A DNA stretch of 64,000 bases, from NCBI RefSeq assembly GCF_000374125.1, contig NZ_KB893625.1:716945-780944 (forward strand). Direction: 5' to 3'. Position numbers and translations under genes: made by a program. Below are positions 43,222 to 58,562 of this stretch, piece by piece. The notes beneath the pieces were generated by a model. The model saw only the letters and a list, made by a program, of their open reading frames with translations. It searched no databases and had not been told where the DNA came from. Numbering within the stretch: the stretch's first letter is position 1; every line of letters begins with the position of its first letter. The DNA is from Niabella aurantiaca DSM 17617 (GTDB lineage Bacteria > Bacteroidota > Bacteroidia > Chitinophagales > Chitinophagaceae).

Positions 43222-43423
43222 GAACGGAATATCTGTTCGGTGTTGGGAATAATTGAGGCAGCCTTGCATGTGGGTAGGGGGATGCGGCTATACGCATGCC
43301 CGCTTTTTTATTGAGATCCTTTCTCATGATCTCTAATATAATAAGAAAGGTCGTGGGCCCGGATTTGTATAACCGGTGGCGACCAAAAAATCGTTATTGT
43401 CATGCTGACCTGAAAATTCGGGA

Positions 43424-43473
43424 TTGTTTCAGCATCAAAAGCGATAACTGATTGCCAATAGATGCTGAAACAA
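43424..43473. repeat. REP-like inverted repeat
   Basis: TTGTTTCAGCATC (43424-43436) and GATGCTGAAACAA (43461-43473) are perfect 13-bp arms around a 24-nt loop. The left side continues into CATGCTGACCTGAA (from 43401), a string I associate with dispersed Bacteroidota palindromes of the GTCATGCTGAA...TTCAGCATC type. Confidence 0.6.
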
Positions 43474-43500
43474 CCATCCGATGATCCGATGGCGCGTTTA

Positions 43501-43532
43501 GAACGGCAATCCACTATAAACAGGTTTTTAGG
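43501..43532. repeat. Dispersed 32-bp repeat, copy 2
   Basis: Starts GAACGGCAATCCACTATAAA; 29 of 32 bases match the copy at 40365-40396. Confidence 0.6.
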
Positions 43533-43697
43533 CTCTCCAAAGCGTGTAGACAACCCGTTGGGGGAGATCGGCACGATGCATTCCCCGCATAAGGATTCGT
43601 GTGTATGAATACTGTGCATATGCGTTGCTTTTCTCTTAAGTTGGCAGTTATAGTACAGATGCAAAGCACGGTGCTGGTCAAAAAACCATTATTGCCT

Positions 43698-43720
43698 TAC
43701 TTTTGCACAAACGTTATCAC
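43698..43720 (+). promoter_or_regulatory. Promoter and LacI-type operator of the regulator gene
   Basis: -7 box TACTTTTG (43698-43705) directly followed by CACAAACGTTATCAC (43706-43720). The same TTTTGC-n-C-n-AACGTTATC-n-C arrangement lies before the ribokinase gene at 44992. The operator covers the predicted transcription start. Confidence 0.65.
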
Positions 43721-43722
43721 AG

Positions 43723-44745
43723 TTGAAAAATGTTACCATTAAAACTATTTCGGAGGTTACAGGGCGCTCTCTGACAACCGTTTCGCGCGTACTAAATGGT
43801 TCCGCAAAAAAGTACAGGATAAAAGAAGAAACGCAAAAGCTTGTGCTGGATGCGGCTCATAAGCTGAACTACGCACCGAACCAGGCGGCGGTAAGTTTAC
43901 GGCTTAACCGGAGTCTTTCCATCGGATTGGTCATACCTACGCTTTCCAATCCTTATTTTGCCGATGTGGCAAGCCTGGTAAGTCATTCGTTAAGAACAAA
44001 AGGATATTCCGTTTTGCTGATGGATTGCGATGAAAAGGAAGCTGCGGAAATTGAGGCGGTCAGATTGCTGGCGGCTCAAAATGTAGGAGGGGTAATCATT
44101 ATTCCTTCGGGTTCCCAGAGCGCGCATATTGAGGTCTTGCTGAAAAGAGGCATTCCCGTGGTCTGTATCGACCGGTACCATGAGAACATACCGGTGTCCT
44201 ACGTGGCAACCAACCATTATGAGGGCGCGTATGCCATGACGCAATACCTGATCAGTTGCGGTCATAAGCGCATCGCCTGTCTTCAGGGCAGTCATGCCGT
44301 AATATCCAATAACCTCCGGGTAAAAGGATACCGGGATGCGATGGGCGCCGGTAACCTGCCTGTTTATAGCGTTGCAGGGAATAGCTTTACACGGGAAAGC
44401 GGGTATATAGAAACAAAGCTGTTATTACAAAAAAAAGAAAAGCCTACTGCTGTTTTTGCCTTGAGCGACACCATCCTCCTGGGTGCTTTAAAGGCAATAA
44501 AAGAAGAAAATATAAAAGTGCCTGCCGATATATCCGTGGTTACTTTTGACAATTCTTCTTACCTGGATTTTTTGGCCTGCCCGGTTACCAGTATCGAGCA
44601 GCCGGTGGGGGATATTGCCAACATGTCTATTAAGTTATTGCAGGACAGGATAAAATCCCATAACCGGGAAGCAGCGGAGCAACAGATGAAGGTGCTCATT
44701 AATCCCAGGATCGTTTTCAGGCAATCGGTAAAAATGCACAAATAG
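43723..44745 (+). CDS. LacI-family transcriptional regulator of the ribose/nucleoside locus
   Basis: 340 residues. The N-terminal HTH reads VTIKTISEVTGRSLTTVSRVLNG, followed by the hinge helix and a periplasmic-binding-protein-like effector domain (GLVIPTLSNPYFAD, PTAVFALSDTILLGALKA, VTFDNSSYLDFLACP). The start is a TTG at 43723; no ATG or GTG is possible upstream, as the frame runs into the promoter. A shared operator before its own gene and before ribokinase points to repression of both, relieved by a sugar. Ribose or a nucleoside-derived sugar is the inferred effector. Confidence 0.92.
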   Translation: MKNVTIKTISEVTGRSLTTVSRVLNGSAKKYRIKEETQKLVLDAAHKLNYAPNQAAVSLRLNRSLSIGLVIPTLSNPYFADVASLVSHSLRTKGYSVLLMDCDEKEAAEIEAVRLLAAQNVGGVIIIPSGSQSAHIEVLLKRGIPVVCIDRYHENIPVSYVATNHYEGAYAMTQYLISCGHKRIACLQGSHAVISNNLRVKGYRDAMGAGNLPVYSVAGNSFTRESGYIETKLLLQKKEKPTAVFALSDTILLGALKAIKEENIKVPADISVVTFDNSSYLDFLACPVTSIEQPVGDIANMSIKLLQDRIKSHNREAAEQQMKVLINPRIVFRQSVKMHK

Positions 44746-44832
44746 TTGTTACACCCGATCCTGTCAAACAGGAATATTGCTTAAGGCAATTTACAACGTC
44801 TGCAGGCATGCGCAATGCAGGTATTGAAGTAA

Positions 44833-44854
44833 GGCGGCGGATTGCCGCCGTTTT
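44833..44854 (+). terminator. Hairpin terminator between the regulator and ribokinase genes
   Basis: 6-bp GC stem GGCGGC / GCCGCC, 5-nt loop, then GTTTT. It separates the regulator transcript from the ribokinase operon, which then depends on its own promoter. Confidence 0.6.
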
Positions 44855-44969
44855 CCGGTTGTATAAAATTTTCAACTCTCTATACAATATTACCATTATT
44901 TAATTCACACGAAGTTGATAAACAATTAGTTGTGGGATATTCCCATATTCCGGGACTGAACAGGCCTTT

Positions 44970-45011
44970 TTTGGGTTGGATTTTTTTTCTATTTTGCGCT
45001 AACGTTATCGC
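44970..45011 (+). promoter_or_regulatory. Promoter and LacI-type operator of the ribokinase operon
   Basis: TTTG at 44970-44973, a 16-bp spacer, then TATTTTG (44990-44996) and the operator GCTAACGTTATC (44998-45009), with palindromic core TAACGTTA. The sequence TTTTGC-n-C-n-AACGTTATC-n-C is shared with the regulator gene's own promoter. Confidence 0.7.
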
Positions 45012-45042
45012 TAATGGATCGATAAAAAACCACAGCTTGAAT

Positions 45043-45954
45043 ATGAATAAAAGGGTCGTCATCATTGGTAGTTCAAATACGGATATGGTTGTCAGAACAC
45101 CTCATTTCCCTGCCGGGGGAGAAACGCTGATGGGGACAGATTTCCTGATGAACGCCGGTGGAAAGGGAGCAAACCAGGCAGTAGCAGTAGCAAGATTGGG
45201 GGGAGAGGCTACTTTCATCTGCCGTACCGGTGATGATCTGTTTGGTAAGAATGCGGTTGAGCTATTTGCTACGGAAGGTATCAACACCGCCTATATTACC
45301 GAGGATGCGGGAACTCCTTCCGGTATCGCCATCATTACGGTGAACAATGCGGGAGAAAATACCATCGTTGTCGCTCCGGGCGCTAACGCGCAGTTGAGCG
45401 TGCCCCAGGTCGAAGCCGCGCATGAGGCCATCGCATCGGCTGGGTTTGTATTGATGCAGCTGGAGATTCCGATGCATACGGTTCTGTATGCGGCAAGGAT
45501 GGCATTCGGGAATCGGGTGCCTATCGTATTAAATCCGGCACCCGCAGTGTCCCTGCCGGACGAACTCTACCAAATGATTTCCATTATTACACCCAATGAA
45601 AAGGAAGCCTCCCTGCTGAGCGGCATAACAATAGTTGACCAGGCAAGCGCGCGAAAAGCAGCAGCGGTTCTGGCCGGCAAAGGTGTTGGCACCGTGGTCA
45701 TCACGATGGGAAGTGAAGGCGCCCTGCTATACGATGGCGGCGCATTTACCCATATCGGCGCTCCGGCCGTTGTAGCAGTGGATACGACCGCAGCGGGAGA
45801 TGTTTTTAATGGGGCGCTCGTGGTGGCACTAAGTGAAAGAAAGGAACTTGCGGAGGCCGTATTGTTTGCCTGTCAGGCTGCTGCCCTGTCTGTTACAAGG
45901 TACGGCGCCCAGAGCTCGGTGCCTTACAGAAGCGAGCTGTCGCCTGTCGCCTGA
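45043..45954 (+). CDS. rbsK: Ribokinase
   Basis: 303 residues from the ATG at 45043. The frame is open 67 codons further upstream, but those codons span the promoter and operator. PfkB-family motifs are clear: NAGGKGANQAVA (residues 38-49) and the catalytic loop DTTAAGDVFNG (247-257, base D253), which matches true ribokinases very closely. It phosphorylates ribose to ribose 5-phosphate in the cytoplasm. It heads the catabolic operon, with a sugar permease 43 bp downstream. Confidence 0.94.
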   Translation: MNKRVVIIGSSNTDMVVRTPHFPAGGETLMGTDFLMNAGGKGANQAVAVARLGGEATFICRTGDDLFGKNAVELFATEGINTAYITEDAGTPSGIAIITVNNAGENTIVVAPGANAQLSVPQVEAAHEAIASAGFVLMQLEIPMHTVLYAARMAFGNRVPIVLNPAPAVSLPDELYQMISIITPNEKEASLLSGITIVDQASARKAAAVLAGKGVGTVVITMGSEGALLYDGGAFTHIGAPAVVAVDTTAAGDVFNGALVVALSERKELAEAVLFACQAAALSVTRYGAQSSVPYRSELSPVA

Positions 45955-45997
45955 TGTCATTGAATTGTTTTTGCCATATATAAAAAATGAACCTGCT

Positions 45998-46996
45998 ATG
46001 TTTATTGTACACAATTACACGCTTGCCGTAATTTTTTGTTTTATTACCATGCTGTGCTGGGGCTCCTGGGGCAATACTCAGAAACTTGCGGCACGGACCT
46101 GGAGGTATGAACTGTTTTACTGGGATTATGTGGTTGGGGTATTACTGTTTTCTCTAATTGCTGCTTTTACGTTGGGCAGTATCGGAAATGAGGGCAGAAG
46201 CTTTTTGGCGGACTTGATGCAAGCCAGTGGCAGTAATATGCTGAGTGCCTTTGTGGGGGGGATCATATTTAACGCTTCCAATATCCTGCTGTCGGCGGCG
46301 ATTGCTATTGCGGGTATGTCGGTAGCCTTTCCGCTTGGGGTAGGTATAGCCCTGGTATTGGGAGTTGTGGTTAATTATATAGGTGCACAAAAAGGAGACC
46401 CGATGCTTTTATTTCTGGGGGTGACTTTGATCGTTGTTGCCATTATACTGAATGCGCTTGCCTACAGATCCAAAGGCGAAACACAAAAGAGCTCTTTCAA
46501 AGGGATCCTGATCTCAGTCATTGCCGGGGTACTGATGGCCTTCTTTTACCGGTTCATTGCGGGATCCATGGACCTGGATAATTTTTCGTCGCCTGCAACC
46601 GGAAAAATGACGCCGTATACTGCTGTTTTTATTTTTTCGACCGGGATATTTGCCAGCAATTTTATTTTTAATACGCTGCTGATGAAGCGCCCTTTCGTTG
46701 GTGCTCCTGTTTCCTATAAAGATTATTTCTCCGGAAATTTTTCAACCCATCTTACGGGCGTCCTTGGGGGCCTGATATGGGGGTTGGGCAATTCGCTCAA
46801 CCTGATTGCTGCAGGTAAGGCGGGTGCCGCAATATCCTACGGTCTTGGACAGGGTGCTACGATGGTGGCCGCTTTCTGGGGTGTATTTATCTGGAAAGAG
46901 TTCAGAGATGCCAGGAAAAATGTAAATGGAAAACTGGCTCTGATGTTCCTGCTGTTTATCGCAGGCATCGTCCTGATCATTGCAGCCGGGAAATAG
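45998..46996 (+). CDS. GRP-family (glucose/ribose porter) sugar permease
   Basis: 332 residues from the ATG at 45998 (the longer frame overlaps the ribokinase gene and is rejected). It has ten hydrophobic helices in the arrangement of the DMT-superfamily sugar transporters RhaT and GRP. Signatures include MLCWGSWGNTQKL near the N-terminus, a mid-protein AMSVAFPLGVGIALVLG-type helix, and GGLIWGLGNSLNLIAAGKAG. The GRP family includes ribose permease RbsU of lactobacilli, which fits the adjacent ribokinase. It would move the sugar across the cytoplasmic membrane. Confidence 0.85.
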   Translation: MFIVHNYTLAVIFCFITMLCWGSWGNTQKLAARTWRYELFYWDYVVGVLLFSLIAAFTLGSIGNEGRSFLADLMQASGSNMLSAFVGGIIFNASNILLSAAIAIAGMSVAFPLGVGIALVLGVVVNYIGAQKGDPMLLFLGVTLIVVAIILNALAYRSKGETQKSSFKGILISVIAGVLMAFFYRFIAGSMDLDNFSSPATGKMTPYTAVFIFSTGIFASNFIFNTLLMKRPFVGAPVSYKDYFSGNFSTHLTGVLGGLIWGLGNSLNLIAAGKAGAAISYGLGQGATMVAAFWGVFIWKEFRDARKNVNGKLALMFLLFIAGIVLIIAAGK

Positions 46997-47109
46997 GATC
47001 GCGCTTCGGATCGACGCGCCTTACAGCGGGTCTGTAAAATGACTGCCCGGGTAGCGCTGACTGATTTTTTTGATAACGATGAACAACTTGTTCTTAAAAT
47101 GAAAGGTTT

Positions 47110-48159
47110 ATGAGATTTATTACGACAATGATCGCTGGATTATTACTGCTGGCATCTTTAGCATCTGCCCAGCAAAATGCGGTGCTGAAGAATGAGTATC
47201 TGTTTGACAAAGCACCTTTTGCTGAATGCCATGCCTCCACAATAGCGCAAACGCCCGGGGGGGTGGTTGTGGCCTATTTTGGTGGAACCAAAGAGCAAAA
47301 CCCGGATGTGGAAATATGGGTGCAGCGGCGGGTGGCCGGTCGCTGGAGCGCGCCGGTTTCGGTGGCCAACGGTATTCAACATTCAAAAAAGAGATACCCT
47401 TGCTGGAATCCCGTTTTATTTCAGGTGCCCGGTGGCGAATTAATGCTTTTTTATAAAGTGGGACCAAGCCCTCAAACCTGGTGGGGAGAGCTGATCCGGT
47501 CAAAGGACAATGGTAGAACCTGGTCGGAACCCAGACGGCTTCCGGAGGATATCCTGGGCCCGGTAAAGAACAAACCGGTGCTATTGCCGGATGGCACGCT
47601 GTTGTGTCCGTCGAGCACAGAAGTGAAATCTGATCAGGGTTGGAAACTGCATTTTGAAATGACGAAGGACTGGGGCAAAACCTGGACCATCACAGAAAAG
47701 ATCGATACGGCGTCGGCTGTTGATGCGATCCAGCCAAGTGTACTGTTCCACAAGGGCAACAGACTGCAACTACTTGCCAGAAGTAAAGATGATGGTGTGG
47801 TCACCAGCTGGTCGGATGATAACGGTGTTACATGGTCCAAAATGGAAAAGAACATCCTGCCAAATCCAAACTCCGGTACGGACGCCGTTACCCTCGGGGA
47901 TGGCACGCAGTTGCTTGTATATAACCCCACGGGAAAAACAGCGAACCGGTGGGGCGGTATGCGCTCCCCGTTAAACCTGGCGATGAGCAGAGACGGCCTG
48001 CATTGGGAAAGTGTAGCAACGCTGGAAAGCGGAAAGGGTGAGTTCTCTTATCCCGCGATCATCCAGGGTGCAGACGGCCGGGTCTATATCACCTATACCT
48101 GGAACAGGAAGAATATAAAATTTGTAATCATTGATCCTTCCAAATTGAAAGGGAAATAA
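47110..48159 (+). CDS. Secreted BNR/Asp-box repeat protein (sialidase-superfamily fold)
   Basis: 349 residues with a signal peptide (MIAGLLLLASLASAQ). Three Asp-box motifs are seen: SKDNGRTW near residue 130, KDWGKTW near 185 and SDDNGVTW near 237, so it has the six-bladed propeller of the BNR_2 group. The conserved FAECHASTI and GGTKEQNPDVEIW near the N-terminus fit this group. It should not be called a sialidase, since the Arg triad cannot be assigned with confidence. A lone half-site GATAACG lies at 47072-47078 before it. The next gene starts 12 bp downstream. Confidence 0.8.
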   Translation: MRFITTMIAGLLLLASLASAQQNAVLKNEYLFDKAPFAECHASTIAQTPGGVVVAYFGGTKEQNPDVEIWVQRRVAGRWSAPVSVANGIQHSKKRYPCWNPVLFQVPGGELMLFYKVGPSPQTWWGELIRSKDNGRTWSEPRRLPEDILGPVKNKPVLLPDGTLLCPSSTEVKSDQGWKLHFEMTKDWGKTWTITEKIDTASAVDAIQPSVLFHKGNRLQLLARSKDDGVVTSWSDDNGVTWSKMEKNILPNPNSGTDAVTLGDGTQLLVYNPTGKTANRWGGMRSPLNLAMSRDGLHWESVATLESGKGEFSYPAIIQGADGRVYITYTWNRKNIKFVIIDPSKLKGK

Positions 48160-48171
48160 AAAAGAATAAAT

Positions 48172-49134
48172 ATGAAACAGCTTTACTTGTGTTTACTGGC
48201 AATCTCCTTTGGCCTTTTTGTTCAAAGTCGGGGACAGGTGCCGCTTAAAGTGATTTTTGATACGGATATGGGACCCGATTATGATGATGTGGGTGCTATG
48301 GCCGTATTGCATAGTTTCGCTGATCAGGGAAAAATCGATATCAAAGCGGTCATGTCATCCAATGCTTTTGATCTTACCGGTCCTACCATCCAGATCCTCA
48401 ACGAATATTTTCATCGCCCGGGTATTCCCGTGGGTGTGCCCAAAGGCAAGGCGCTTAATTATAAATCTCCCTTTTGCTGGAATGAATACCTGGTTGCCCG
48501 GTATCCGGTCAAAAGAAAAAATTATGAGGACGCAGTTGCTTTATACAGAAAAGTATTATCTGAGGCGGCCGATAAAAGTATTACCATAATAACGGTGGGA
48601 TTTTTAACGAACCTTTCGGATTTGCTGGATAGCAAGGCGGACTCCTCTTCAAACCTCACGGGGCGCGAATTAGTGGCCAGGAAGGTCCGGAATTTATATT
48701 GTATGGGAGGCCGTTTTCCCCAGGGAAAGGAATATAACATACGAAGGGATCCCCTTGCTTCTAAAAATGTAGTTGATAACTGGCCTGCTTCGATCTATTT
48801 CCTGGGCTTTGAAGTGGGGATAAAAATATTGACGGGAAAAGAGTTCCTTACGGATTATTCGATAAAGAACAGCCCCATAAAGGATGTGAATATCATTGTT
48901 CTTCCGCAGCGTGATGAAGATGCAAACGGCAGAATGAGCTGGGATCAGGCTACCGTGCTGGCTGCTGTTGATAACGAAAGAAAATATTTCAATGTTGTGA
49001 GGGGCGATTTTTTATTAAATGCCGATGGGGCTAATTCCTGGAAGGATAATGCTGAGGGGAATCATTATTATTTCACTCCGAAGGCTTCCATAGAAGCGAT
49101 CACCAAAGCGATAAAACTACTGATGTACCGGTAG
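48172..49134 (+). CDS. Secreted nucleoside hydrolase (IUNH family)
   Basis: 320 residues with a signal peptide (LCLLAISFGLFVQSRGQ). The catalytic Ca2+-binding cluster reads VIFDTDMGPDYDDVGAM (D30, D32, D36, D38, D39). The family hydrolyses N-glycosidic bonds of nucleosides to base and ribose; export means it acts in the periplasm or at the surface. With ribokinase and a GRP permease in the same operon it completes a nucleoside-to-ribose 5-phosphate route. Some family members act on other ribosides, so the natural substrate is uncertain. Confidence 0.9.
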   Translation: MKQLYLCLLAISFGLFVQSRGQVPLKVIFDTDMGPDYDDVGAMAVLHSFADQGKIDIKAVMSSNAFDLTGPTIQILNEYFHRPGIPVGVPKGKALNYKSPFCWNEYLVARYPVKRKNYEDAVALYRKVLSEAADKSITIITVGFLTNLSDLLDSKADSSSNLTGRELVARKVRNLYCMGGRFPQGKEYNIRRDPLASKNVVDNWPASIYFLGFEVGIKILTGKEFLTDYSIKNSPIKDVNIIVLPQRDEDANGRMSWDQATVLAAVDNERKYFNVVRGDFLLNADGANSWKDNAEGNHYYFTPKASIEAITKAIKLLMYR

Positions 49135-49259
49135 TAGCATAACGACGGCGGAAACGCCGGGAGATCGGAGAAGATCGCAATCGCGATGGCGTTTGCGCAA
49201 CGGGAACCTTTGCTATTGTGTCAACCAGGCTTTTTTACATTTCTTAATCAGATATAAAA

Positions 49260-52200
49260 ATGAAAATTTATTTTTCTAAACGGTTCTGCCTGCTGGGAGC
49301 CCTGCTGTTGTCAGGTACCCTTTACGGATATGCTCAATCCGTTTCAATTAGAGGAACGGTGATCAACAGCTCCGGGGAACCGCTAAAAATGGCAACAGTT
49401 GCCAATGTGAATTCAAAATCTAAAACGGTTACAAACGATAAAGGGGCATACACCATAAAAGGCGCCGAAAACGATGAAGTAGCGATCTCGTTTGTGGGAT
49501 ACCTGACCAGGGTATTCAGGATCACCCGGAAAGACCCGGTGGTCGATATCATATTATACCCGGCAGGCGATTCGCTCAATGAAGTGGTTGTGGTGGGGTA
49601 TGGCGTTCAGAAAAAGGCGAATTTAACCGGTGCTGTTGCAGAAATAAAGGGCGCGCAGATCGCCAATAAAGTAGCTGTTAACCCCCTGGAAGCCTTGCAG
49701 GGAGAATTGCCTGGCGTTGTAATTACTCAAACGAACGGACAGCCGGGAGATGAAGGACTGGACGTAACCATCCGCGGGGCTTCTTCTGTAAACGCCTTTG
49801 CGCCCCTGGTATTGATCGATGGTGTAGAAGGCGACCTGCAAGGTATTAATCCGCAGGATATCGAATCTATTTCTGTTTTGAAAGATGCATCATCTGCTGC
49901 GATATTTGGTTCAAGGGCCGCCGGGGGGGTCATATTGGTGAAAACGAAAACGGGCACAACGGCCGGCAAGGCGAAAGTATCCTATTCCGGCCAAACAACC
50001 ACGACCTGGCAGGGCCGCCTTCCGGACCGGTTGAACTCCTGGGATGAGGTAAGCCTTTCGCAATATGCCAATTCGAGGGTTATGAACCCGCAGACCCTGA
50101 ATTGGCTGAAGAACCCCAATTTGAACGCCATTTTACAAAATGAAACAGGGATAGACTTTGCCGATAACACCAACTGGCTGAGAGTGGCTACCAAAGACTA
50201 CAGCAGCATCAACAGGCATTCCATTAACGTACGGGGAGGAACAAAGCCCCTGAATTACATGCTGTCCGGAGGCTATTTTAACGACCAGGGATTCATGAAA
50301 TACGGGCCGGATAATAATGAGATATACAATGTACGATTCAATCTGAATGCCCAGGTGAGTAAAAACCTTGCTGTATTTTTGGGGCTGAGTGATAATTATA
50401 TCGAAAGGCAGGAAAATGCTTTTGGAAATAAATCGTTGTATGAATGGATGCTAAGGGTCAGGACAACCGGGCCCATATACTACCCTAAAGACGAAGATCC
50501 GGTTCCCAACCCGAGTGAATACGCCGGTTCAACAGGCCAGAATATTATTGATGTACAGAAAAACGGAGGTGTCCAGAAACAACAGCTCAATGACCTCACA
50601 GGGCAGCTACGCGTTCGGTTGTCAAATTTTGATTTTTTAAAGGGATTCTCGATAGATGTCACCGGGTCAAGGCGGTATCTGACAAGCAGTTTGAACAAAT
50701 ATTACCACCGGCTGGAATGGTACGTAAGGGGTGGTAAAAAGGCCCCGCGTGTTCTGGGACAAACGGATTATTTATATAAGCAGCGGAACGTGGCCATTAC
50801 CGATAAATTTAATGCGGTTGCCAATTATGAGAAAACGGTTTCCCGCAATCATAATATTTCCGGACTGGCCGGGATTGAATACCTGAATTATCAGTTCGAC
50901 AGGGTCTATACCCAAAAGAACTACGTACCGGAAAACCGGCAGTCATTAAATTTTGGAGAAGCGAGTTCCGCAAGTAACGGGGATCTGATAGAAACGGAAA
51001 AGCTCTTTTCAATCTTTGGGCGATTGAACTATAATTTTAAAGGGAGGTATTTGCTTGAAGGAAATATCCGCAAAGACGGCAGCTCGCGCCTGTCGCCCCA
51101 GAATCGATGGAAGACTTATGCTTCGGCATCCGCAGGCTGGGTGATCAGTAAGGAGGGTTTTTTCAGGGATCTGCTTCCCGTTGTCAATAATTTCAAGATC
51201 AGAGGATCCGTAGGACAACTGGGCAACTCGGTACTGCTTGGTTACTACGATTATCTGCCACTGATTTACAGGGGGCAGACCTATTTCAACGGAACAGCGC
51301 AGGATGCGTATTATATAAGAACCCTGCCTTCGGCGGATCTGACCTGGGAGGATATTGAAAATCGAAACCTGGGTATTGATCTGAGCATGTTTGGTAATAA
51401 GCTTTCTTTTGTTGGAGATATATACCGCAAGAAGAATGTTAATATGCTGGCGGCAGATGTAAATGTGCCATCAATGATAGGGGTAGGGGTTTCATCCAGG
51501 AATTCGGGAGTGCTGACAACGAATGGATGGGAATTTATGATAGCGTATCATAACAAAGTGCAGGCATTTAAATATAATGTTTCGTTCAATTTATCTGATA
51601 GTCGGAATATGCTTACGAAATATAGCGATGCCAATGTCATTTCCGAGGGAAATACAGCGCTGCTCGAAGGCTATCCTATCAATACGATCTGGGGATACAG
51701 AACCGACGGGCTTTTTCAGGTGGACCCGACAAACGCGGATAAAACATTTCAGATCGGTAAATCTGCTATAACGATCGGCGATCTGAAATATGTGAACCTG
51801 GATAAGGACCCGAATATCAATGGGGGGGATTACACAAAAGAGAACCACGGTGATCTGATCTATTATGGTACATCAGACCCGCGATATACGTTTGGCTTCA
51901 ACCTTGGAGGGGAGTACAGGAATTTCAGCTTTAATATCTTTTTACAGGGCGTTGGCAAAAGGGAATTTATGGTGGGTGCTGAAACGTTGAACCCTACAAG
52001 CGGCACCCTGTACCAGCCGATGAGTTTTCATCTTGACTATTGGACCCCGGAAAATACAGACGCGTTTTTCCCAAGACCCCATTATACTTCGGGGGGATAT
52101 AATTACAGACCGGCGGATCGCTGGATACAGGACGCAAAATATTTAAGGATTAAAGAAGTGCGTCTGCAATACAAACTGTTCAAATTGAAGCAATACTTCG

Positions 52201-52349
52201 ACGTTTTTGAGATATACTGCTCCGGTAAAAACTTATATGAGTTTACGAACACCTGGAAGGTCTTCGATCCGGAATCCCCTTCCTTAACTACAACCACATG
52301 GTATCCCTATAACCGTTCGGTTACAATTGGTCTAAACTTAACCTTTTAA
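49260..52349 (+). CDS. susC: SusC/RagA-type TonB-linked outer membrane protein
   Basis: 1029 residues. A signal peptide (LLGALLLSGTLYGYAQ) is followed by a carboxypeptidase-like domain (GTVINSSGEPLKMATV), the SusC signature SLNEVVVVGYGVQKKANLTG near residue 100, a plug with PLVLIDGVEGD and SAAIFGSRAAGGVI, and the long barrel ending in a Phe. It forms the outer-membrane importer with the SusD protein 20 bp downstream. Its place behind ribokinase, permease and nucleoside hydrolase suggests uptake of a ribose- or nucleoside-containing compound. A weak -7-like AACCTTTG lies at 49205-49212. Confidence 0.95.
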   Translation: MKIYFSKRFCLLGALLLSGTLYGYAQSVSIRGTVINSSGEPLKMATVANVNSKSKTVTNDKGAYTIKGAENDEVAISFVGYLTRVFRITRKDPVVDIILYPAGDSLNEVVVVGYGVQKKANLTGAVAEIKGAQIANKVAVNPLEALQGELPGVVITQTNGQPGDEGLDVTIRGASSVNAFAPLVLIDGVEGDLQGINPQDIESISVLKDASSAAIFGSRAAGGVILVKTKTGTTAGKAKVSYSGQTTTTWQGRLPDRLNSWDEVSLSQYANSRVMNPQTLNWLKNPNLNAILQNETGIDFADNTNWLRVATKDYSSINRHSINVRGGTKPLNYMLSGGYFNDQGFMKYGPDNNEIYNVRFNLNAQVSKNLAVFLGLSDNYIERQENAFGNKSLYEWMLRVRTTGPIYYPKDEDPVPNPSEYAGSTGQNIIDVQKNGGVQKQQLNDLTGQLRVRLSNFDFLKGFSIDVTGSRRYLTSSLNKYYHRLEWYVRGGKKAPRVLGQTDYLYKQRNVAITDKFNAVANYEKTVSRNHNISGLAGIEYLNYQFDRVYTQKNYVPENRQSLNFGEASSASNGDLIETEKLFSIFGRLNYNFKGRYLLEGNIRKDGSSRLSPQNRWKTYASASAGWVISKEGFFRDLLPVVNNFKIRGSVGQLGNSVLLGYYDYLPLIYRGQTYFNGTAQDAYYIRTLPSADLTWEDIENRNLGIDLSMFGNKLSFVGDIYRKKNVNMLAADVNVPSMIGVGVSSRNSGVLTTNGWEFMIAYHNKVQAFKYNVSFNLSDSRNMLTKYSDANVISEGNTALLEGYPINTIWGYRTDGLFQVDPTNADKTFQIGKSAITIGDLKYVNLDKDPNINGGDYTKENHGDLIYYGTSDPRYTFGFNLGGEYRNFSFNIFLQGVGKREFMVGAETLNPTSGTLYQPMSFHLDYWTPENTDAFFPRPHYTSGGYNYRPADRWIQDAKYLRIKEVRLQYKLFKLKQYFDVFEIYCSGKNLYEFTNTWKVFDPESPSLTTTTWYPYNRSVTIGLNLTF

Positions 52350-52369
52350 TCAAAGAAACAATAGTTATC

Positions 52370-54010
52370 ATGAAAATAAATTGGTTTAATATTTCGCTGA
52401 TAGGGCTGTTGATCGGGAGCCTGCAGGCATGTGAAATAGATACCTTCCCTGAAACGAGTATCACAGAAGCGAATTTTTGGGTTTCGGAAAAAGATTTTCA
52501 GGGAGCTGCAAATCAGTTATACGCTTTGTTAAATGCCGAGCAGCTTGAGGATATGCGCGCGGATGACATCAACAACGGAAAAACCCCGGATGTTGTGAGC
52601 GCGGGTACCCGGGTGGCACCCGCTACGAGCAATGATTGGACAAGGCCCTATAATTCAATATTTGTTGCGAACAGGATCATAGAACATGCGCCGGCCATTT
52701 CGGGCGAGCTGACACCTGCCGAAGTAAAAATAATGCAATACGTATCAGAGGCCAGGTTTTTCAGATGCTATTACTATTTTAACCTGGTGAAGAAATTCGG
52801 AGATGTGCCTTTAATGACACGGTCTGCGGTCGATTCAAGAGACCCTGTTTTGTACACCCCAAGAACCTCCAGGGATTCGATTGTGCGGTTTATTTACCGG
52901 GACCTGGATTCGGCGATTCAATACCTGCCGCTTCCTTCCACGCAGGGAGTTGCTGAATATGGCAGAATTACCAAAACCGCTGCATGGGGCCTGAAAGCCA
53001 GGGCCGGTCTATACGAAGGAACGCGGGCAAAATACCATGGTTATAATGAAAATTATAAGGAACATTTGAAAATGTCCTACGAGGCCGCTTACGAAGTGAT
53101 CCGGTCCGGGCAGCATGGCTTGTATAAAAATGGAGCCACCCCTTATCATGAGCAATTTTTATACGCAGGGGAGGGGCCTGCCAATAAAGAGAACATGCTT
53201 GTAAAAATATACGGGTATCCGGATAATATTTATATAACGAATAACTATCCTTATGATTACTATTACCGGTTTGGCCCCACCCGTAATTTTTTAAATTGCT
53301 ACCTGAGATCGGATGGCACGCCGTTTATTGATAATGCTGGAACAGAACCCTCGTACAATACATACCTGGAAAACCGGGACCCGCGCCTGGCTCAAACGGT
53401 GATGAAGAATGGGGAAACGGGATATATCAACAGCGTTTTCAGGCCTTACCAGGAATCAAAAACGGCCTTCGGCTTTAAAAAATATGTACCGCTGAACAAT
53501 ATCCTGGATAATCCGAGCACCGTGGATATAACCTTAATGCGGTATGCGGAGGTCCTTGTGAGCTATGCAGAAGCAAAATATGAGTACAATGGCGCTATCT
53601 CCGATGAGGATCTGAATCTTTCGATCAATCAGCTGAGGGACCGGGTGCATTTTGTGCATCTTACCAACTCGTTCGTGGAGACTCATGGCCTGAACATGCT
53701 TGAAGAGATCAGAAGGGAGCGATCTGTGGAGCTGGCGTTTGAAGGATTCCGGTATGACGATATTATGAGGTGGAAGAAGGCGGAGGAGCTGCTGCCGGTG
53801 GAGCTACTTGGAGCCAGGTATAATGCGGATGATTGGTATTCGGGGGCTGATCCGGGTAATATAATCAGCAGGTTAAATGATGAGGGCGTCTTAATAATTG
53901 AAAGTAAAGACAACCGGTTCTTTAACCCGGACAGAGACTATTTATATCCGATTCCATATAACGACGTTGCAAACAGCAGGCAAACGTTAAAACAAAATCC
54001 TAATTGGTAA
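52370..54010 (+). CDS. susD: SusD/RagB-type nutrient-binding outer membrane lipoprotein
   Basis: 546 residues. A lipoprotein leader ends in Cys (IGSLQACEID). The N-terminal SusD-like domain with TPR-type helices (VSEARFFRCYYYFNLVKKFGDVP) and the C-terminal RagB/SusD domain (EEIRRERSVELAFEGFRYDD) are both complete. It sits as a lid on SusC and binds the extracellular ligand. The gene is 20 bp after susC and its end overlaps no other coding start. Confidence 0.95.
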   Translation: MKINWFNISLIGLLIGSLQACEIDTFPETSITEANFWVSEKDFQGAANQLYALLNAEQLEDMRADDINNGKTPDVVSAGTRVAPATSNDWTRPYNSIFVANRIIEHAPAISGELTPAEVKIMQYVSEARFFRCYYYFNLVKKFGDVPLMTRSAVDSRDPVLYTPRTSRDSIVRFIYRDLDSAIQYLPLPSTQGVAEYGRITKTAAWGLKARAGLYEGTRAKYHGYNENYKEHLKMSYEAAYEVIRSGQHGLYKNGATPYHEQFLYAGEGPANKENMLVKIYGYPDNIYITNNYPYDYYYRFGPTRNFLNCYLRSDGTPFIDNAGTEPSYNTYLENRDPRLAQTVMKNGETGYINSVFRPYQESKTAFGFKKYVPLNNILDNPSTVDITLMRYAEVLVSYAEAKYEYNGAISDEDLNLSINQLRDRVHFVHLTNSFVETHGLNMLEEIRRERSVELAFEGFRYDDIMRWKKAEELLPVELLGARYNADDWYSGADPGNIISRLNDEGVLIIESKDNRFFNPDRDYLYPIPYNDVANSRQTLKQNPNW

Positions 54011-54027
54011 TTAAAATTTTGTGTTTC

Positions 54028-54657
54028 ATGAAAAAGATAATTTTTGCTATTGCAGTCTTGGTCGTGCTAACCCCGATGATATCATGTAAAAAAAAGTATA
54101 TCAATTACCCGGATGGTTATGATCATATGTACTATGTATTTTTCGATTACAATTACGATAATCCGGCTAAGTATAATGCAAATCTCACCGTCAATATTAA
54201 AAGGAACTACGCCGAATTAACGCCTATTAAGGTGAAATTCATGTCGGAGTTTATTCGCGACTATGATGTGGCCGTCAAAATGTATGTGCAGCAATCGGAT
54301 AGTTTTTATGTGGGCGTTAAAGCGACCACGATCAACCTGGCCCGGCCGAATGTGGATTATCAATTACTGGATTCAAATAATAGGGTGTTGGACCCCATTG
54401 AAGAGAACGGAACGGTCTGTTATCTGGCCAACTTTCCGCATGCTCAAAAAGGGGTGCAGACCTTTTATCTTAAAATGCTGAATAACACAGCCGACGATCT
54501 GAATAAGACCTTTTTCTTTTCCTTTACTCCAACTACGATCAACACGGGCGGGACCGAAGCAGAATTCATACAATCGGCAACCGTGAATAGGACCCCGGTT
54601 TATTCTGTATTGTCCTATTCCAGCTCCTATTTTCGCCGGTTTAATATTAATAAATAA
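54028..54657 (+). CDS. SusD-linked lipoprotein (DUF4843-like)
   Basis: 209 residues from the ATG at 54028 (MKKIIFAIAVLVVLTPMISCKKK, a lipoprotein leader). The earlier in-frame GTG/ATG would start inside the upstream intergenic gap. The mature part has an all-beta pattern, with the FPHAQKGVQTFYLKML segment typical of DUF4843 proteins that follow susCD. These are thought to be surface glycan-binding accessory proteins. It starts 17 bp after susD and ends 1 bp before the next gene. Confidence 0.7.
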   Translation: MKKIIFAIAVLVVLTPMISCKKKYINYPDGYDHMYYVFFDYNYDNPAKYNANLTVNIKRNYAELTPIKVKFMSEFIRDYDVAVKMYVQQSDSFYVGVKATTINLARPNVDYQLLDSNNRVLDPIEENGTVCYLANFPHAQKGVQTFYLKMLNNTADDLNKTFFFSFTPTTINTGGTEAEFIQSATVNRTPVYSVLSYSSSYFRRFNINK

Positions 54658-54658
54658 A

Positions 54659-57025
54659 ATGATGCATATTATGAAACCGATCCATAGAGCTGTATTCCTT
54701 TTTGCCTTTCTCTTTTCCTGCTACTCCATGAAGGCTGAAAGCGTTGCCACACTAAATTTGAACGGGTCGTATCTTGAAGTGGCTGGAAATGGTGCCATAG
54801 TGAAGAAAGCCGCCCTTATCCTGGATAAGGAAATATACGACCGGGCCGGCATTCATCTTCTGAACGCTCAAAAGGATGTGAACCAGATCCGGTTGGTAGT
54901 GGGTTTGGAGTCTGAAATAAAAAGGGCCTGCCCGGAAGCAGCCCCGTTATATCTGAATCTTCCCGGTGAGGATACCGACGGCTATAAAATAATGTATTCG
55001 GAGGTACAGAAATTGCTGATCATAAGCGGAAATGACGATCGGGGCGTGCTGTATGGCGTTGGCTATTTATTGAGGAAATCCGGAATTGCAAATAATGCCA
55101 TCCTGTTTCATTATTCAGGGAATGTTTATTCCCATCCTGAGAAGGAATACAGGGGCATCGGACTTCGGGCAAATGTAAAATATGAATCCTTTGAAGACAG
55201 GCTCCGGTATTTTGATGACTATGTAAAAGATCTTGTTCTCTTTGGTCTGAATAGCGTGGATCTGACAATCGGATATAACCCGGAATATATAAAAACGGCA
55301 ATGTCCTATGGTTTAAAAATAGGTATTGTAAGCTTTGATAATGGTAAAGACTTTGTCACGACTGAAGGTGTATATAATGAATTAAGAAAACGGGAGCAAT
55401 TTTTTGAAGCCTGTCCCAGGATCGATAATTATACGATTAAATCCGGTGACCCCGGTAATCTTTCAGCTAAAGATTTTTTTGAGTTTACAAAAAAAGAGAT
55501 CATCCTGTTAAAAAAATATCATCCGGAGGCAAAGGTTTGGATAGCTCCGCAGAAATTTAACGGTGGAACAAGATCGTATTTTGACGAATTTATTACGGAA
55601 ATTCTGAAATACGATTGGATCGACGGCCTGGTTTATGGACCATGGGCCAGGTTTTCACTGGATGCGTACAGAAGCAAGCTGGGTGGATCAAAGTCCATCC
55701 GGCATTTTGTTGATATCGGACATATTTATAGTGCTCAGTATCCCATTAACTATTTGGATCTTCCATGGGCCATTTCGTATGGAAGGATCGTAATAAACCC
55801 GAGGCCGGTGGCGATGAAGAACATCCACGACCGGCTTTCAGCGGGCACCGTTGGATCCATTCAATATTCAGAAGGTTCGAATGATGATGTGAACAAATTT
55901 GTCTGGACCTCTTTAGAGTGGAACCCAGGTGCGGATATTGATGACGTATTGTTAGATTATAGCCGGTTTTTTATAGGACCTGGATATGCAGGTGATTTTT
56001 GCAGAGGACTGAAATACGAGGAAGCTTCGCTGGAAGGCCGGATCGATAGCAATCGCTCCGTTAATAAGGCATATGCTATTTTTGGCAAATTAGATGCGGA
56101 TACAAAAAATGGATCTGATGTGTATCACCAAACGCGCTATAGAATGGGTTTGCTGAGAGCATTTTTTGATCAATACGTAAAACTCCGGTACCTGTATGAG
56201 ACCCAGGTAGAGCGGGAGTTTGTCAATTATCTCAGGACCTCCGGCGGTGGGTTTAAAAAGGCGGTTGCGCTGGAAATATTGAACAGGGAGAACCCTTCAT
56301 CTGAGTTCCGTTCCCTGAAGGAAAAGTGCCATAAACTTTATTCATTGGTTTATACGGGCGAGGAGGGGATGTGGACCGATGAAGGCCAGAAATGCATACT
56401 GAATGCTCAGATGGATCTGCCTTTGAATAACAGGGATTGGTATTTATACAAACTATCCGGATTTAATAATGAAGGGAAAGAAACTGCAAAAGAAGCGAAG
56501 ATCCTGAAAGAGCTGAGAGCGGTGGCTTCTAAAGATCAGCGGGGTGCTTACTTTAATCTGGGCTCATTTGAAAACGGGCTGATCGAAGATGCCGGATCGG
56601 GTTACGGCGATGATCCTTATTACCTGATGCATCCTTATATCGGCTACGGCGTGCAGATGGATCGGTTCCGGATCACCCGCAAAGATTTTAATAACCGGCC
56701 CATCAGAAATGAATGGCTCACCCAGCTGGGCAGGTATTATGATGAGCCTTTACAGTTGGAGTTCCCGATAAAGCACCCGGAAGAGAAGTATAAGCTGAAC
56801 ATCACTTACGCCGGGGAAGCTACCCGCTATAAGGTAAAGGTCCGGTTGATTGCCAACGGCTCTTATGTGGTGCATGATTTTATGACCCTGTCGCCCGATA
56901 AGTATGCTTATCAGTTCAAGATCCCGCCCCGGTTGTATAAGGATGGGAAAATCACACTAACCTGGATCTGCGGGCCGGGCGAACGGGGTGTTAATGTGGC
57001 CGAAGTGTTTTTTGAGAAGGAATAA
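54659..57025 (+). CDS. Unclassified glycoside hydrolase-like protein of the ribose/nucleoside locus
   Basis: 788 residues with a signal peptide (AVFLFAFLFSCYSMKAES, from the Met at 54671 onwards). The N-terminal ~150 residues match the small alpha/beta domain found before the barrels of GH20/GH67/GH84/GH115 enzymes (DDRGVLYGVGYLLRKSG). A TIM-barrel-like region follows (~residues 160-420) with YGPWARFSLDAY and NDDVNKFVWTSLEW, then an all-helical region and a C-terminal beta domain. I cannot place it in a GH family or name the catalytic acids. It is the last gene of the operon; the context suggests release of a ribose- or nucleoside-type ligand. Confidence 0.7.
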   Translation: MMHIMKPIHRAVFLFAFLFSCYSMKAESVATLNLNGSYLEVAGNGAIVKKAALILDKEIYDRAGIHLLNAQKDVNQIRLVVGLESEIKRACPEAAPLYLNLPGEDTDGYKIMYSEVQKLLIISGNDDRGVLYGVGYLLRKSGIANNAILFHYSGNVYSHPEKEYRGIGLRANVKYESFEDRLRYFDDYVKDLVLFGLNSVDLTIGYNPEYIKTAMSYGLKIGIVSFDNGKDFVTTEGVYNELRKREQFFEACPRIDNYTIKSGDPGNLSAKDFFEFTKKEIILLKKYHPEAKVWIAPQKFNGGTRSYFDEFITEILKYDWIDGLVYGPWARFSLDAYRSKLGGSKSIRHFVDIGHIYSAQYPINYLDLPWAISYGRIVINPRPVAMKNIHDRLSAGTVGSIQYSEGSNDDVNKFVWTSLEWNPGADIDDVLLDYSRFFIGPGYAGDFCRGLKYEEASLEGRIDSNRSVNKAYAIFGKLDADTKNGSDVYHQTRYRMGLLRAFFDQYVKLRYLYETQVEREFVNYLRTSGGGFKKAVALEILNRENPSSEFRSLKEKCHKLYSLVYTGEEGMWTDEGQKCILNAQMDLPLNNRDWYLYKLSGFNNEGKETAKEAKILKELRAVASKDQRGAYFNLGSFENGLIEDAGSGYGDDPYYLMHPYIGYGVQMDRFRITRKDFNNRPIRNEWLTQLGRYYDEPLQLEFPIKHPEEKYKLNITYAGEATRYKVKVRLIANGSYVVHDFMTLSPDKYAYQFKIPPRLYKDGKITLTWICGPGERGVNVAEVFFEKE

Positions 57026-57554
57026 CGCTGCCTCGGCAATTCCGGTCTTTTTATCTGTGGAAGAAGAGGGGTGGAGGATCGCCTGTATAATAAAGATGCC
57101 GGCAGGATGCGGGGTTTATGTCACTTTAACAAATGCCCGGATCTTTCGGAAGTTGTTTCAGATTTTTCAATATGTCGCTCCGATGGGGCTTAAAAATCGT
57201 ATGACCGTTTTTTTAGCGGCACACGGCGCTATGGGCCAGCCCGGTTAGGGCGTTATGCCGGTAATATGGATCAACAAAGCAGCAGAAAGCCCCGTCGGGG
57301 CAGCCTGCTTGCCACCATCCGAAACGTTTAAACAACTCCAAAAACAGCATTATCCGGAAATGATTGAACCGACCTGTTTTTAAACAGTTCCCTGGAACGG
57401 ATGGGTTTACAGGATCGTCAAGTTCAATACGAACGCAGCGAAAGCGGGTTCTGACCGGCCGTACCCGGTCTTCAGGAACCACCTGTAAAAATACTGGTTT
57501 TCCTGTATTTCCTGGTGTAGCAACGAGGGGTATTTTCGCATTAAAATGTAAACC
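57026..57554. other. Intergenic region between the nucleoside locus and the vWA lipoprotein gene
   Basis: About 530 bp with no accepted gene. Contains the palindrome element at 57165-57310 and a near-match -7 box TATTTTCG at 57531-57538 for the downstream gene. Confidence 0.4.
57165..57310. repeat. Intergenic element with three short palindromes
   Basis: GCTCCGATGGGGC (57177-57189), GCCCGGTTAGGGC (57239-57251) and GCCCCGTCGGGGC (57289-57301) are 4-5-bp-stem palindromes of similar composition spaced 50-60 bp apart. This pattern resembles dispersed intergenic repeats common in Bacteroidota genomes as I recall them. Confidence 0.5.
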
Positions 57555-58562
57555 ATGCGAATGAATTACCCCGGCGGGTTCTTAAACCTGCGTCTTGCTG
57601 CGGCCCTTGTTGCGGTTATGCTGTTCTCCTGTAAAAAGGATGATACCATAAAGATCACCCCCCCGCTGAATGACAACTCACTGCCCTCCGCTGCGGTGTA
57701 TAACGTAAAAATACTGGAAGGAAGCGATAAGAAGGTCCGCTTTTCCGTGGATCTTGCCCTGTTCAAGGATTCCAGGAATATGGAATATGGTTTTGACGCC
57801 CGGCATTTTTGGATCGATACCTTTCTGAATGCTTATGCCTTCAAAGCAATAAAGACTTCGCTGACTGGCGGAGGGGGAGCCTCCCGCTACGCTTCCATCA
57901 TGCTGATGGACCAGAGCGGAAGCACCAACCAGACGGATCCTGATGACCTGCGGATCGATGCCGGCAAGATCTTTTGCTGGAATATGGGACAGGGCAACGA
58001 TTCCTGGGTATGGTGGTTCTCTTCCGGCTATTATAAAATAGGCCCGGGCTTTACTTCCGATACGGCGCAGCTGGTGAAAGACGTGGAGCTGGTGCGCAAC
58101 AAACCCAAGAATCAAACCCTGCTTTATGATTCGCAATATGAGTCCGTCAACAGCCTTTCCCAAAGTGCCACCAAACCTGTGAAGGCCTTGCTTACGTTCA
58201 CAGACGGGCAAAACAATGCCGGAAGCAAAAGCAGTACAGCCGTGGTCAATGCCGCAAAAACAGCAAACGTACGTCTTTATAATATTGGATTGGGCGCGTC
58301 ATCCGATGCGTACCTCTATGATCAGGCCGTTGCAACCGGTGGCGCGTTTATGTATGCAAAAGACGCAAAACAGCTGATCAGTATGTTTGGTAACCTGGGG
58401 AAATTGCTGGAGGGGTCGGCTAAATTCTATTCTGTGGAATGGGAGATGACGCCCGTGGGGAACGGTTCAGTTATTGGAAAAGGTGTCTACGATGTTGTAT
58501 TGAAAGTAGTGACACCGTACAACTACACCATTGACGTTCCGGTTACGGTACGGTACCAGTAG
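57555..58562 (+). CDS. von Willebrand factor A-domain lipoprotein
   Basis: 335 residues with a lipoprotein leader (LVAVMLFSCKKDD, Cys near residue 26). The vWA domain shows the MIDAS metal site DQSGSTNQT near residue 120 and the second conserved segment LLTFTDGQNNAG near residue 215. A C-terminal beta part (~residues 290-335) follows. vWA domains mediate metal-dependent protein contacts. The gene stands alone, so partner and role are unknown. Confidence 0.8.
   Translation: MRMNYPGGFLNLRLAAALVAVMLFSCKKDDTIKITPPLNDNSLPSAAVYNVKILEGSDKKVRFSVDLALFKDSRNMEYGFDARHFWIDTFLNAYAFKAIKTSLTGGGGASRYASIMLMDQSGSTNQTDPDDLRIDAGKIFCWNMGQGNDSWVWWFSSGYYKIGPGFTSDTAQLVKDVELVRNKPKNQTLLYDSQYESVNSLSQSATKPVKALLTFTDGQNNAGSKSSTAVVNAAKTANVRLYNIGLGASSDAYLYDQAVATGGAFMYAKDAKQLISMFGNLGKLLEGSAKFYSVEWEMTPVGNGSVIGKGVYDVVLKVVTPYNYTIDVPVTVRYQ

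What the first reader, a model, noticed from the sequence alone, without database searches (positions are those of the whole stretch)
43698..57025. Ribose/nucleoside-scavenging PUL with LacI control, a possible Chitinophagaceae version of the rus system
One locus joins a LacI regulator, true ribokinase (DTTAAGDVFNG loop), GRP-family permease, exported nucleoside hydrolase, exported BNR protein, SusC/SusD, a SusD-linked lipoprotein and a GH-like protein. Established knowledge: B. thetaiotaomicron has a rus locus combining ribokinases, nucleoside hydrolase and SusC/D for ribose scavenging. Here there is a single ribokinase and a LacI regulator. Inference: extracellular nucleosides or a ribose-bearing compound are bound by SusCD, hydrolysed, and ribose is taken in and phosphorylated.
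Basis: partly seen in the sequence, partly recalled or inferred. Interest (0 to 1): 0.82.

Follow-up and report, generated by a model that had tools for sequence, protein, structure and literature searches.

The report
Ribose-scavenging gene cluster, LacI-controlled variant
A soil-type bacterium carries a gene cluster, apparently inserted, that very probably collects ribose; it is a variant of a ribose-scavenging system already known in gut bacteria, with a different switch protein and two extra exported proteins whose target is unknown.

Summary
In detail: window 43723-57025 is a co-directional cluster lacI, ribokinase, permease, exported BNR_2 protein, exported nucleoside-hydrolase-fold protein, susC, susD, lipoprotein, GH-like protein. 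By gene context it is a ribose-utilisation (rus) system: among 77 named loci with an orthologous permease, 61 have a ribokinase within 2.5 kb and 50 have nucleoside-hydrolase- or ADP-ribosylglycohydrolase-like genes. One ribokinase is usual, and LacI occurs in 13 of 77, so neither is special. Specific here: (1) an exact 16-bp operator candidate upstream of rbsK in 4 of 4 LacI-type loci of the genus (inferred: Niabella), absent within 3 mismatches from 10 of 10 other permease loci there; (2) the cluster looks like a ~14.3-kb insertion: its flanking genes are adjacent in 5 of 8 congeners examined; (3) the "nucleoside hydrolase" has the variant motif DXXXDXDD, as do 38 of 38 relatives of its class in rus-type loci, so nucleosides as substrate are not assured; (4) BNR_2 and GH-like genes occur in 0 of the 77 loci; the GH-like protein has a GH115/GH84/GH67-type fold and many changes at family-invariant positions. 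Verdict: new variant of a known kind.

The parts
43222..57486 (.). Apparent inserted cassette holding the whole locus; flanking genes are adjacent in five relatives
   Evidence: Nucleotide homology to 5 relatives ends at 43216-43221 (43205 in G846) and resumes at 57487-57488 (57619 in G846)
43704..43720 (+). Candidate LacI operator upstream of lacI (3 mismatches)
   Evidence: similar site upstream of lacI in G704 and G867/L243, not within 3 mismatches in G872/L233
43723..44745 (+). LacI-family regulator (TTG start as listed; start uncertain)
   Evidence: Pfam LacI 39.6 bits and Peripla_BP_3 108.5 bits; 72% and 75% identical to LacI of two congeneric loci
44996..45011 (+). Candidate LacI operator GCGCTAACGTTATCGC upstream of rbsK
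   Evidence: Exact in 4 of 4 LacI-type loci of the genus, absent within 3 mismatches from 10 of 10 other permease loci of the genus; within 2 mismatches one further place in the genome, and the backward control pattern also gave one
45043..45954 (+). Ribokinase (RusK-like)
   Evidence: TIGR02152 and PRK11142 above cut-off
45998..46996 (+). Inner-membrane permease, RusT-like
   Evidence: Pfam PF07168/PF06800; relatives near a ribokinase across Bacteroidota
47110..48159 (+). Exported BNR_2 (sialidase-like propeller) protein with three Asp-box-like motifs
   Evidence: PF13088 2.2e-91; motifs at residues 131, 185, 235; 73-78% identical copies in the three other LacI-type loci of the genus
48172..49134 (+). 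Exported nucleoside-hydrolase-fold protein with variant DXXXDXDD motif
   Evidence: PF01156 58 bits; AF2 pLDDT 92, the 50 PDB hits listed are nucleoside or riboside hydrolases; motif
49183..49199 (-). Weak third operator-like site in the NH-susC gap (3 mismatches)
   Evidence: no counterpart in L233, and in L243 the third site falls inside susC
49260..52349 (+). SusC/RagA TonB-dependent transporter
   Evidence: TIGR04056 766.5 bits
52370..54010 (+). SusD-family surface lipoprotein
   Evidence: PF07980 129.7 bits
54028..54657 (+). Small lipoprotein after SusD, no known family
   Evidence: No family over cut-off; lipobox-like start (reading by recall); no match at E<=1e-3 among the loci compared
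54659..57025 (+). Exported GH-like protein (GHx), GH115/GH84/GH67-type fold, divergent pocket loops
   Evidence: AF2 pLDDT 81.5; best PDB match GH115 4c90, E 1.2e-19, TM 0.47, 12% identity; 42 departures from columns invariant in 16 homologues

Best explanation
This is a LacI-controlled ribose-utilisation (rus) locus, probably acquired as a cassette, in a bacterium that I infer to be a Niabella species. Proposed working: without ligand LacI sits on the site upstream of rbsK (and on a weaker one upstream of its own gene) and represses. When ribose or a derivative binds LacI, the operon is expressed. SusC/SusD bind and import a ribose-bearing compound; the exported nucleoside-hydrolase-fold enzyme, helped by the BNR_2 and GH-like proteins, frees ribose; the RusT-like permease brings ribose into the cytoplasm; the ribokinase makes ribose-5-phosphate. 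Shown here by sequence: gene content, kinship of the kinase-permease core to other rus-type loci, the conserved operator candidate, the occupied and empty site, the folds. Inferred: ligand, direction of regulation, substrate, enzyme activities, export.
For: Ribokinase over curated cut-offs. Permease relatives at E<=1e-30 in 13 of 395 phylum genomes, 34 of 295 genomes of the order of G578 and 12 of 17 genomes of the genus (the first and last counts include the window's own genome). In 77 named loci with the permease ORF: a ribokinase-like gene in the locus in 65, within 2.5 kb in 61, an NH- or ADP-ribosylglycohydrolase-like gene in 50, SusC in 32. Published B. thetaiotaomicron rus (BT2803-2809) is required for ribose use and RusT is proposed to import free ribose (PMC12596196, passages); BT2804-2809 are listed as ribokinase, TonB-dependent receptor, SusD, DUF4969 protein, nucleoside hydrolase and DMT permease (PMC10434189, passages). 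Operator candidate exact upstream of rbsK in 4 of 4 LacI-type loci of the genus and absent within 3 mismatches from 8 of 8 RusR-type and 2 of 2 other permease loci there.
Against: No RusR-like gene and no ADP-ribosylglycohydrolase gene in the cluster. The hydrolase lacks the classical NH motif and has W257 where a PDB relative aligned has histidine. SusC and SusD are only about 28-31% identical to those of other rus-type loci, so substrate carry-over is unproven. Outside the genus only 3 of 13 LacI-containing named loci have an operator-like site within 3 mismatches, against 3 of 67 without LacI. The genome has five other PfkB-family matches (6 in all). 12 of 77 named permease loci show no ribokinase-like gene, some because contigs end. 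No expression or biochemical data.
Confidence: 0.8

Rival explanations
1. The locus takes ribose from a ribose-decorated glycan or glycoconjugate rather than from nucleosides: the GH-like protein and the BNR_2 protein trim the glycan and the NH-fold enzyme removes ribose.
For: Two glycosidase-type accessory proteins, absent from 77 named permease loci; GH115/GH84/GH67-type fold and divergent pocket loops of GHx; several close BNR_2 paralogues sit beside or fused to rhamnosidase-like proteins (names by recall); variant NH motif.
Against: Ascertainment: the best 80 of 580 permease relatives may miss loci with such genes, and many loci are cut by contig ends. The nearest GHx relatives found are 27-37% identical, so its substrate cannot be inferred. 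The three other LacI-type Niabella loci lack GHx.
Confidence: 0.3
2. Reading of the first reader: nucleoside scavenging, the NH-fold enzyme splitting nucleosides outside the cytoplasm.
For: NH fold and conserved positions E187, N189, D258; ribokinase and RusT-like permease beside it; B. thetaiotaomicron rus contains a nucleoside hydrolase.
Against: 38 of 38 distinct enzymes of this class in the loci held carry DXXXDXDD and none the classical DXDXXXDD. HopQ1, described with this motif, showed no NH activity in that study (PMC3608555, passages). Nucleosides would need neither GHx nor BNR_2.
Confidence: 0.4
3. The sugar is another pentose (for example apiose, arabinose or a deoxyribose) and the ribokinase-family enzyme acts on that.
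For: PfkB kinases can be promiscuous (recalled); accessory proteins are glycan-type.
Against: The kinase passes ribokinase equivalog cut-offs; such kinases lie near RusT-like permeases in 61 of 77 named loci.
Confidence: 0.08
4. A degenerate or silent cassette without present function.
For: Apparent insertion with lower third-position GC than its flanks.
Against: The nine frames are open; the operator candidate is kept; the three other congeneric copies keep the core, although G867 shows split lacI and susD frames and a shortened permease frame in a less complete assembly.
Confidence: 0.05

Closest known systems
Bacteroides thetaiotaomicron ribose-utilisation system rus, BT2803-2809 (Glowacki et al. 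2020, seen only through citing papers; the paper itself is not held)
   Same: Ribokinase, DMT/RusT-type permease, nucleoside-hydrolase-type protein, SusC/SusD in one cluster; loci with the same kinase-permease-NH core in Bacteroides faecichinchillae (L114) and Parabacteroides (L100)
   Different: LacI in place of RusR; one ribokinase (two in B. thetaiotaomicron is recalled; two in L114); extra BNR_2 and GH-like proteins; no ADP-ribosylglycohydrolase; Chitinophagaceae genome
LacI-type rus loci of the same genus (G704 L205, G872 L233, G867 L243)
   Same: LacI, RbsK, permease, BNR_2, NH-fold, SusC/D, identical 16-bp site
   Different: They carry a 704-721-aa protein after the permease (BNR_2 domain in L205) and SusC about 28% identical to the window's; no GHx, no small lipoprotein; gene order and flanks differ
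Sphingobacterium faecale LacI locus (L137)
   Same: LacI, RbsK, permease, NH-fold, SusC, SusD in the same order and strand
   Different: No BNR_2, no GHx; LacI 50% identical, NH 33%
GH115 / GH84 / GH67 glycoside hydrolases
   Same: Overall fold of GHx by Foldseek; GH67-like first domain in the family profile
   Different: About 8-14% identity; the window protein passes no family cut-off
HopQ1-type NH-like proteins (PMC3608555, passages)
   Same: Aspartate motif DXXXDXDD
   Different: Window protein is an exported PUL protein, not an effector; no sequence comparison was made

Membership tests
rus ribose-utilisation system | True ribokinase in the cluster | tested here: met
   Two equivalog cut-offs passed
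rus ribose-utilisation system | RusT-like inner-membrane permease related to those near ribokinases | tested here: met
   62-75% best-segment identity to 80 named loci; ribokinase within 2.5 kb in 61 of 77; not compared with the B. thetaiotaomicron protein itself
rus ribose-utilisation system | Exported ribose-releasing enzyme gene | tested here: inconclusive
   NH fold present, classical motif absent, activity not testable here
rus ribose-utilisation system | SusC/SusD pair in the cluster | tested here: met
rus ribose-utilisation system | RusR regulator (B. thetaiotaomicron form; variable among relatives) | tested here: not met
   LacI instead; RusR-like gene in 19 of 77 and LacI in 13 of 77 named loci, so treated as a variable trait
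rus ribose-utilisation system | Two ribokinases (B. thetaiotaomicron form, recalled) | tested here: not met
   One here; one in 64 of 80 named loci, two in 1 of 80, none found in 15, so not treated as defining
rus ribose-utilisation system | Required for growth on ribose and induced by it | not testable with these tools
   No culture data
Classical nucleoside hydrolase | Nucleoside-hydrolase fold | tested here: met
   Model pLDDT 92; the 50 hits listed are nucleoside or riboside hydrolases, TM about 0.64-0.76
Classical nucleoside hydrolase | N-terminal DXDXXXDD motif | tested here: not met
   DTDMGPDYDD at residues 30-39; definition from PMC3608555
GH67 / GH84 / GH115 | Sequence-family cut-off | tested here: not met
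   Best Pfam GH67N 15.9 bits, cut-off 24.3; 15 of 17 homologues match GH67N at E<=0.1, best 8.3e-7
GH67 / GH84 / GH115 | Fold | tested here: met
   Foldseek E 1.2e-19 to GH115 4c90, TM 0.47; the high rmsd (19.5) shows that domains are placed differently
GH33 sialidase | Catalytic sialidase residues | not tested
   Only BNR_2 membership, weak PDB sialidase matches (best 3.6e-7) and Asp-box-like motifs were seen

The most novel reading that the evidence does not exclude
The cassette attacks a ribose-bearing glycan or glycoconjugate, not nucleosides: GHx would be a ribosidase, or a glycosidase acting next to a ribosyl residue, built on the GH67/GH84/GH115-type fold with a rebuilt pocket, and the rus 'nucleoside hydrolases' with DXXXDXDD would be a separate enzyme class of ribosyl hydrolases that acts on non-nucleoside or modified ribosides.
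Probability: 0.17. Interest if true: 0.7.

Novelty: new variant of a known kind. Interest (0 to 1): 0.42.

Why it matters
rus loci are known and diverse (recalled from the 2020 abstract), but how they swap regulators, move and gain new substrates can rarely be watched closely. Here one genus shows RusR- and LacI-type loci, an occupied and an empty site, a defined operator candidate and a cassette with accessory genes not seen in 77 other loci, so regulator replacement and substrate change become testable. The shared DXXXDXDD motif also gives a genetic context (ribokinase, ribose permease) for a hydrolase class whose substrate is uncertain.

Tried and rejected
Ordinary nucleoside operon: rejected as a complete account because of SusC/D, GHx and BNR_2 and the variant motif. 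Window SusC/D as orthologues of RusC/D: not shown, about 28-31% identity to the best rus-type copies. GHx function from neighbours: its homologues lie in varied settings (sulfatase-like, HpcH/HpaI-aldolase-like and other genes; names by recall), no ribose link found. Close GHx homologues: best identities 33% in 248 order genomes (5 with a match, E<=1e-10), 27-37% in 294 family genomes (15 with a match, E<=1e-30; the 37% match is partial, full-length ones reach 35%) and 33% in 17 genus genomes (2 with a match, the window's own included) (the sets overlap). The primary rus paper is not held. Paper searches: searches found nothing, searches gave unrelated papers and some papers that cite or mention the system; I read passages of four. 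I make no claim that LacI-type rus or GHx is undescribed. The careful permease tree did not finish; the quick tree is used. Three of 80 loci (L123, L126, L150) lost the permease ORF in my ORF picking and were left out of the 77. Many named loci end at contig ends, so absences count only what was held. Gene names given as GH78-like, GH2-like, RhaT-like, kinase-like, DHDPS-like, esterase-like were read from sequence starts and are recalled, not tested.
Full report
What is there. Searches confirm nine open frames on the + strand from 43723 to 57025: LacI regulator, ribokinase, permease, BNR_2 protein, nucleoside-hydrolase-fold protein, SusC, SusD, a small lipoprotein and a GH-like protein (GHx). 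The ribokinase passes two curated ribokinase cut-offs; its frame is best started at 45043 (sequence). The permease matches Ureide_permease better than Sugar_transport.

Is it rus? By gene context, yes. The permease was searched in 395 phylum genomes (13 with E<=1e-30), 295 genomes of the order of G578 (34) and 17 genomes of the window's genus (12); the first and third counts include the window's own genome. A scan of named genome contigs with a 12-row permease alignment kept the best 80 of 580 relatives. In the 77 of these 80 in which I recovered the permease ORF, a ribokinase-like gene lies in the locus in 65 and within 2.5 kb of the permease in 61; an NH-type gene in 26, an ADP-ribosylglycohydrolase-like gene (ARH) in 32, at least one of these or of a second NH class in 50, SusC in 32, SusD in 35, a RusR-like gene in 19, LacI in 13, BNR_2 in 0 and GHx in 0. 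The ARH label rests on one Pfam test (126.5 bits) plus similarity. RusR-like is named by position and by likeness among loci; neither it nor the permease was compared with the B. thetaiotaomicron protein. Bacteroides faecichinchillae (L114) has RusR-like, two ribokinases, permease, NH and ARH, with no SusC/D called in the stretch held. The content of the B. thetaiotaomicron cluster I took from passages of PMC10434189 and PMC12596196. From recall only: the abstract of the 2020 paper says that such systems are broadly represented in Bacteroidetes and have diversified.

What is not special. One ribokinase is usual: 64 of 80 named loci have exactly one at 35% identity or more, 15 none, 1 two. LacI lies in 13 of 80.

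Regulation. Between lacI and rbsK lies GCGCTAACGTTATCGC (44996-45011), a near-perfect palindrome. The 17-mer with up to 3 mismatches gives 4 matches in the window (two are one palindrome on both strands), against a mean of 0.16 in shuffles. In the whole genome, within 2 mismatches, one further place is found; the pattern read backwards also gave one, so that place may be chance. In the genus the 16-mer is exact upstream of rbsK in 4 of 4 LacI-type loci (window, G704, G872, G867) and absent within 3 mismatches from 8 of 8 RusR-type loci and 2 of 2 loci without a regulator call. A weaker copy lies upstream of lacI in the window, G704 and G867, but not within 3 mismatches in G872. Outside the genus support is thin: 3 of 13 LacI loci against 3 of 67 others.

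Origin. The permease tree (quick method; the careful one did not finish) clusters regulator types: the LacI label needs 9 changes against a shuffled mean of 16.0, as low in 0 of 500, though near-copies help such a result. The window permease falls, with the other LacI-type Niabella copies and Sphingobacterium faecale, in a 41-row set (SH-aLRT 95) whose other 36 rows are largely named as Bacteroidales groups; the order within is unresolved. The RusR-type Niabella copies lie outside this set, in three places. The window permease is 86% identical to that of G872 while plsX is 69% identical to G872 and 88-91% to five other congeners. Against a simple transfer from a G872-like donor: LacI (72%), ribokinase (73%) and NH (49%) are not clearly closer to G872 than plsX is.

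Empty site. In 5 of 8 congeners whose plsX region I fetched (G862, G863, G868, G870, G846) the two genes that flank the cluster here, the MBL gene (41818-43221) and the VWA gene (57555-58562), are directly adjacent; in G865, G872 and G704 the region is arranged otherwise. DNA homology stops at 43216-43221 for 4 of 5 (43205 for G846) and resumes at 57487-57488 for 4 of 5 (57619 for G846). Third-position GC is 0.46-0.56 in the nine cluster genes and 0.585-0.606 in four nearby genes. No integrase or end repeat was searched for. Loss in the relatives is not excluded, but insertion is simpler. Of the five, four carry a RusR-type rus locus elsewhere (L234, L239, L240, L241) and G846 has two permease loci with no regulator call; the window genome has one permease copy. 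Replacement of a RusR-type locus by a LacI-type cassette is my reading.

The genus is inferred: L107 is Niabella drilacis with a contig of 107332 bases, equal in length to G865:C38, and the two permeases are identical.

The hydrolase. Its model is confident (pLDDT 92) and the 50 PDB matches listed are nucleoside or riboside hydrolases. E187, N189 and D258 line up with E, N and D of known enzymes in the profile alignments, and W257 with a histidine (roles recalled); W257 and D258 are kept in 14 of 15 aligned rows. The N-terminal motif is DTDMGPDYDD. Among 43 distinct NH-class proteins of at least 250 aa in 106 loci, window not counted, 38 of 38 of the window's class carry DXXXDXDD and 5 of 5 of a second class carry DXXXEXDD; none has the classical DXDXXXDD. 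They were found by similarity to the window protein, so a classical enzyme could have been missed. PMC3608555 (passages) calls DXDXXXDD the hallmark, reports DXXXDXDD in HopQ1, found no NH activity there and proposed other ribose-containing substrates. So cleavage of nucleosides by the window enzyme is plausible but not assured.

The accessory proteins. BNR_2 relatives are common in the family (43 of 147 genomes, E<=1e-30, window's own included) and several lie beside or fused to rhamnosidase-like proteins (names recalled). BNR_2 copies 73-78% identical sit in the three other LacI-type loci of the genus. GHx relatives are rarer: 15 of 294 family genomes, 27-37% identity. The model (pLDDT 81.5) resembles GH115, GH84 and GH67 enzymes (TM by query length 0.37-0.47, 8-14% identity, with high rmsd). 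Against 16 homologues the window copy departs at 42 columns that are otherwise invariant; the next highest row has 3. Many of these lie between residues 167 and 377, the barrel part, while D264, D352, H355, E405, D409 and D410 are kept. The window row is an outgroup to most of the others, which inflates the figure, and a rebuilt pocket is an inference.

Verdict. A rus system in gene content, with a LacI switch, apparently acquired as a cassette, and with unusual accessories: new variant of a known kind. The nucleoside reading stays the leading single substrate guess (0.4), the glycan reading second (0.3); both are readings inside the rus explanation (0.8).

Noticed in passing
window 41818-43221 and 57555-58562: These two genes are neighbours in five congeners; the site between them holds the 14.3-kb cassette here.
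   Followed up: yes
L216 (G704:C1:60001-70200): Upstream of the G704 LacI-type rus locus lie rhamnosidase-like, RhaT-like, sugar-kinase-like, SSS-symporter-like and DHDPS-like genes; DHDPS-like and symporter-like frames also precede the loci of G872 and G867. Names by recall.
   Followed up: partly
L193, L194, L196, L200, L203 and L211: The BNR_2 relative lies in 1112-1277-aa frames; in L211 the frame starts like an alpha-rhamnosidase (name by recall), suggesting a fused enzyme.
   Followed up: no
L233 and L238 (G872): One genome of the genus carries both a LacI-type and a RusR-type rus locus.
   Followed up: partly
L036 (G057:C55): A rus-type locus with three tandem NH-fold genes next to ribokinase and permease.
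   Followed up: no
L106, L118, L126, L128, L145, L146: A recurrent form with three tandem ADP-ribosylglycohydrolase-like genes and one or two esterase-like proteins of about 520-540 aa before the permease (the permease ORF was not recovered in L126; esterase by recall).
   Followed up: no
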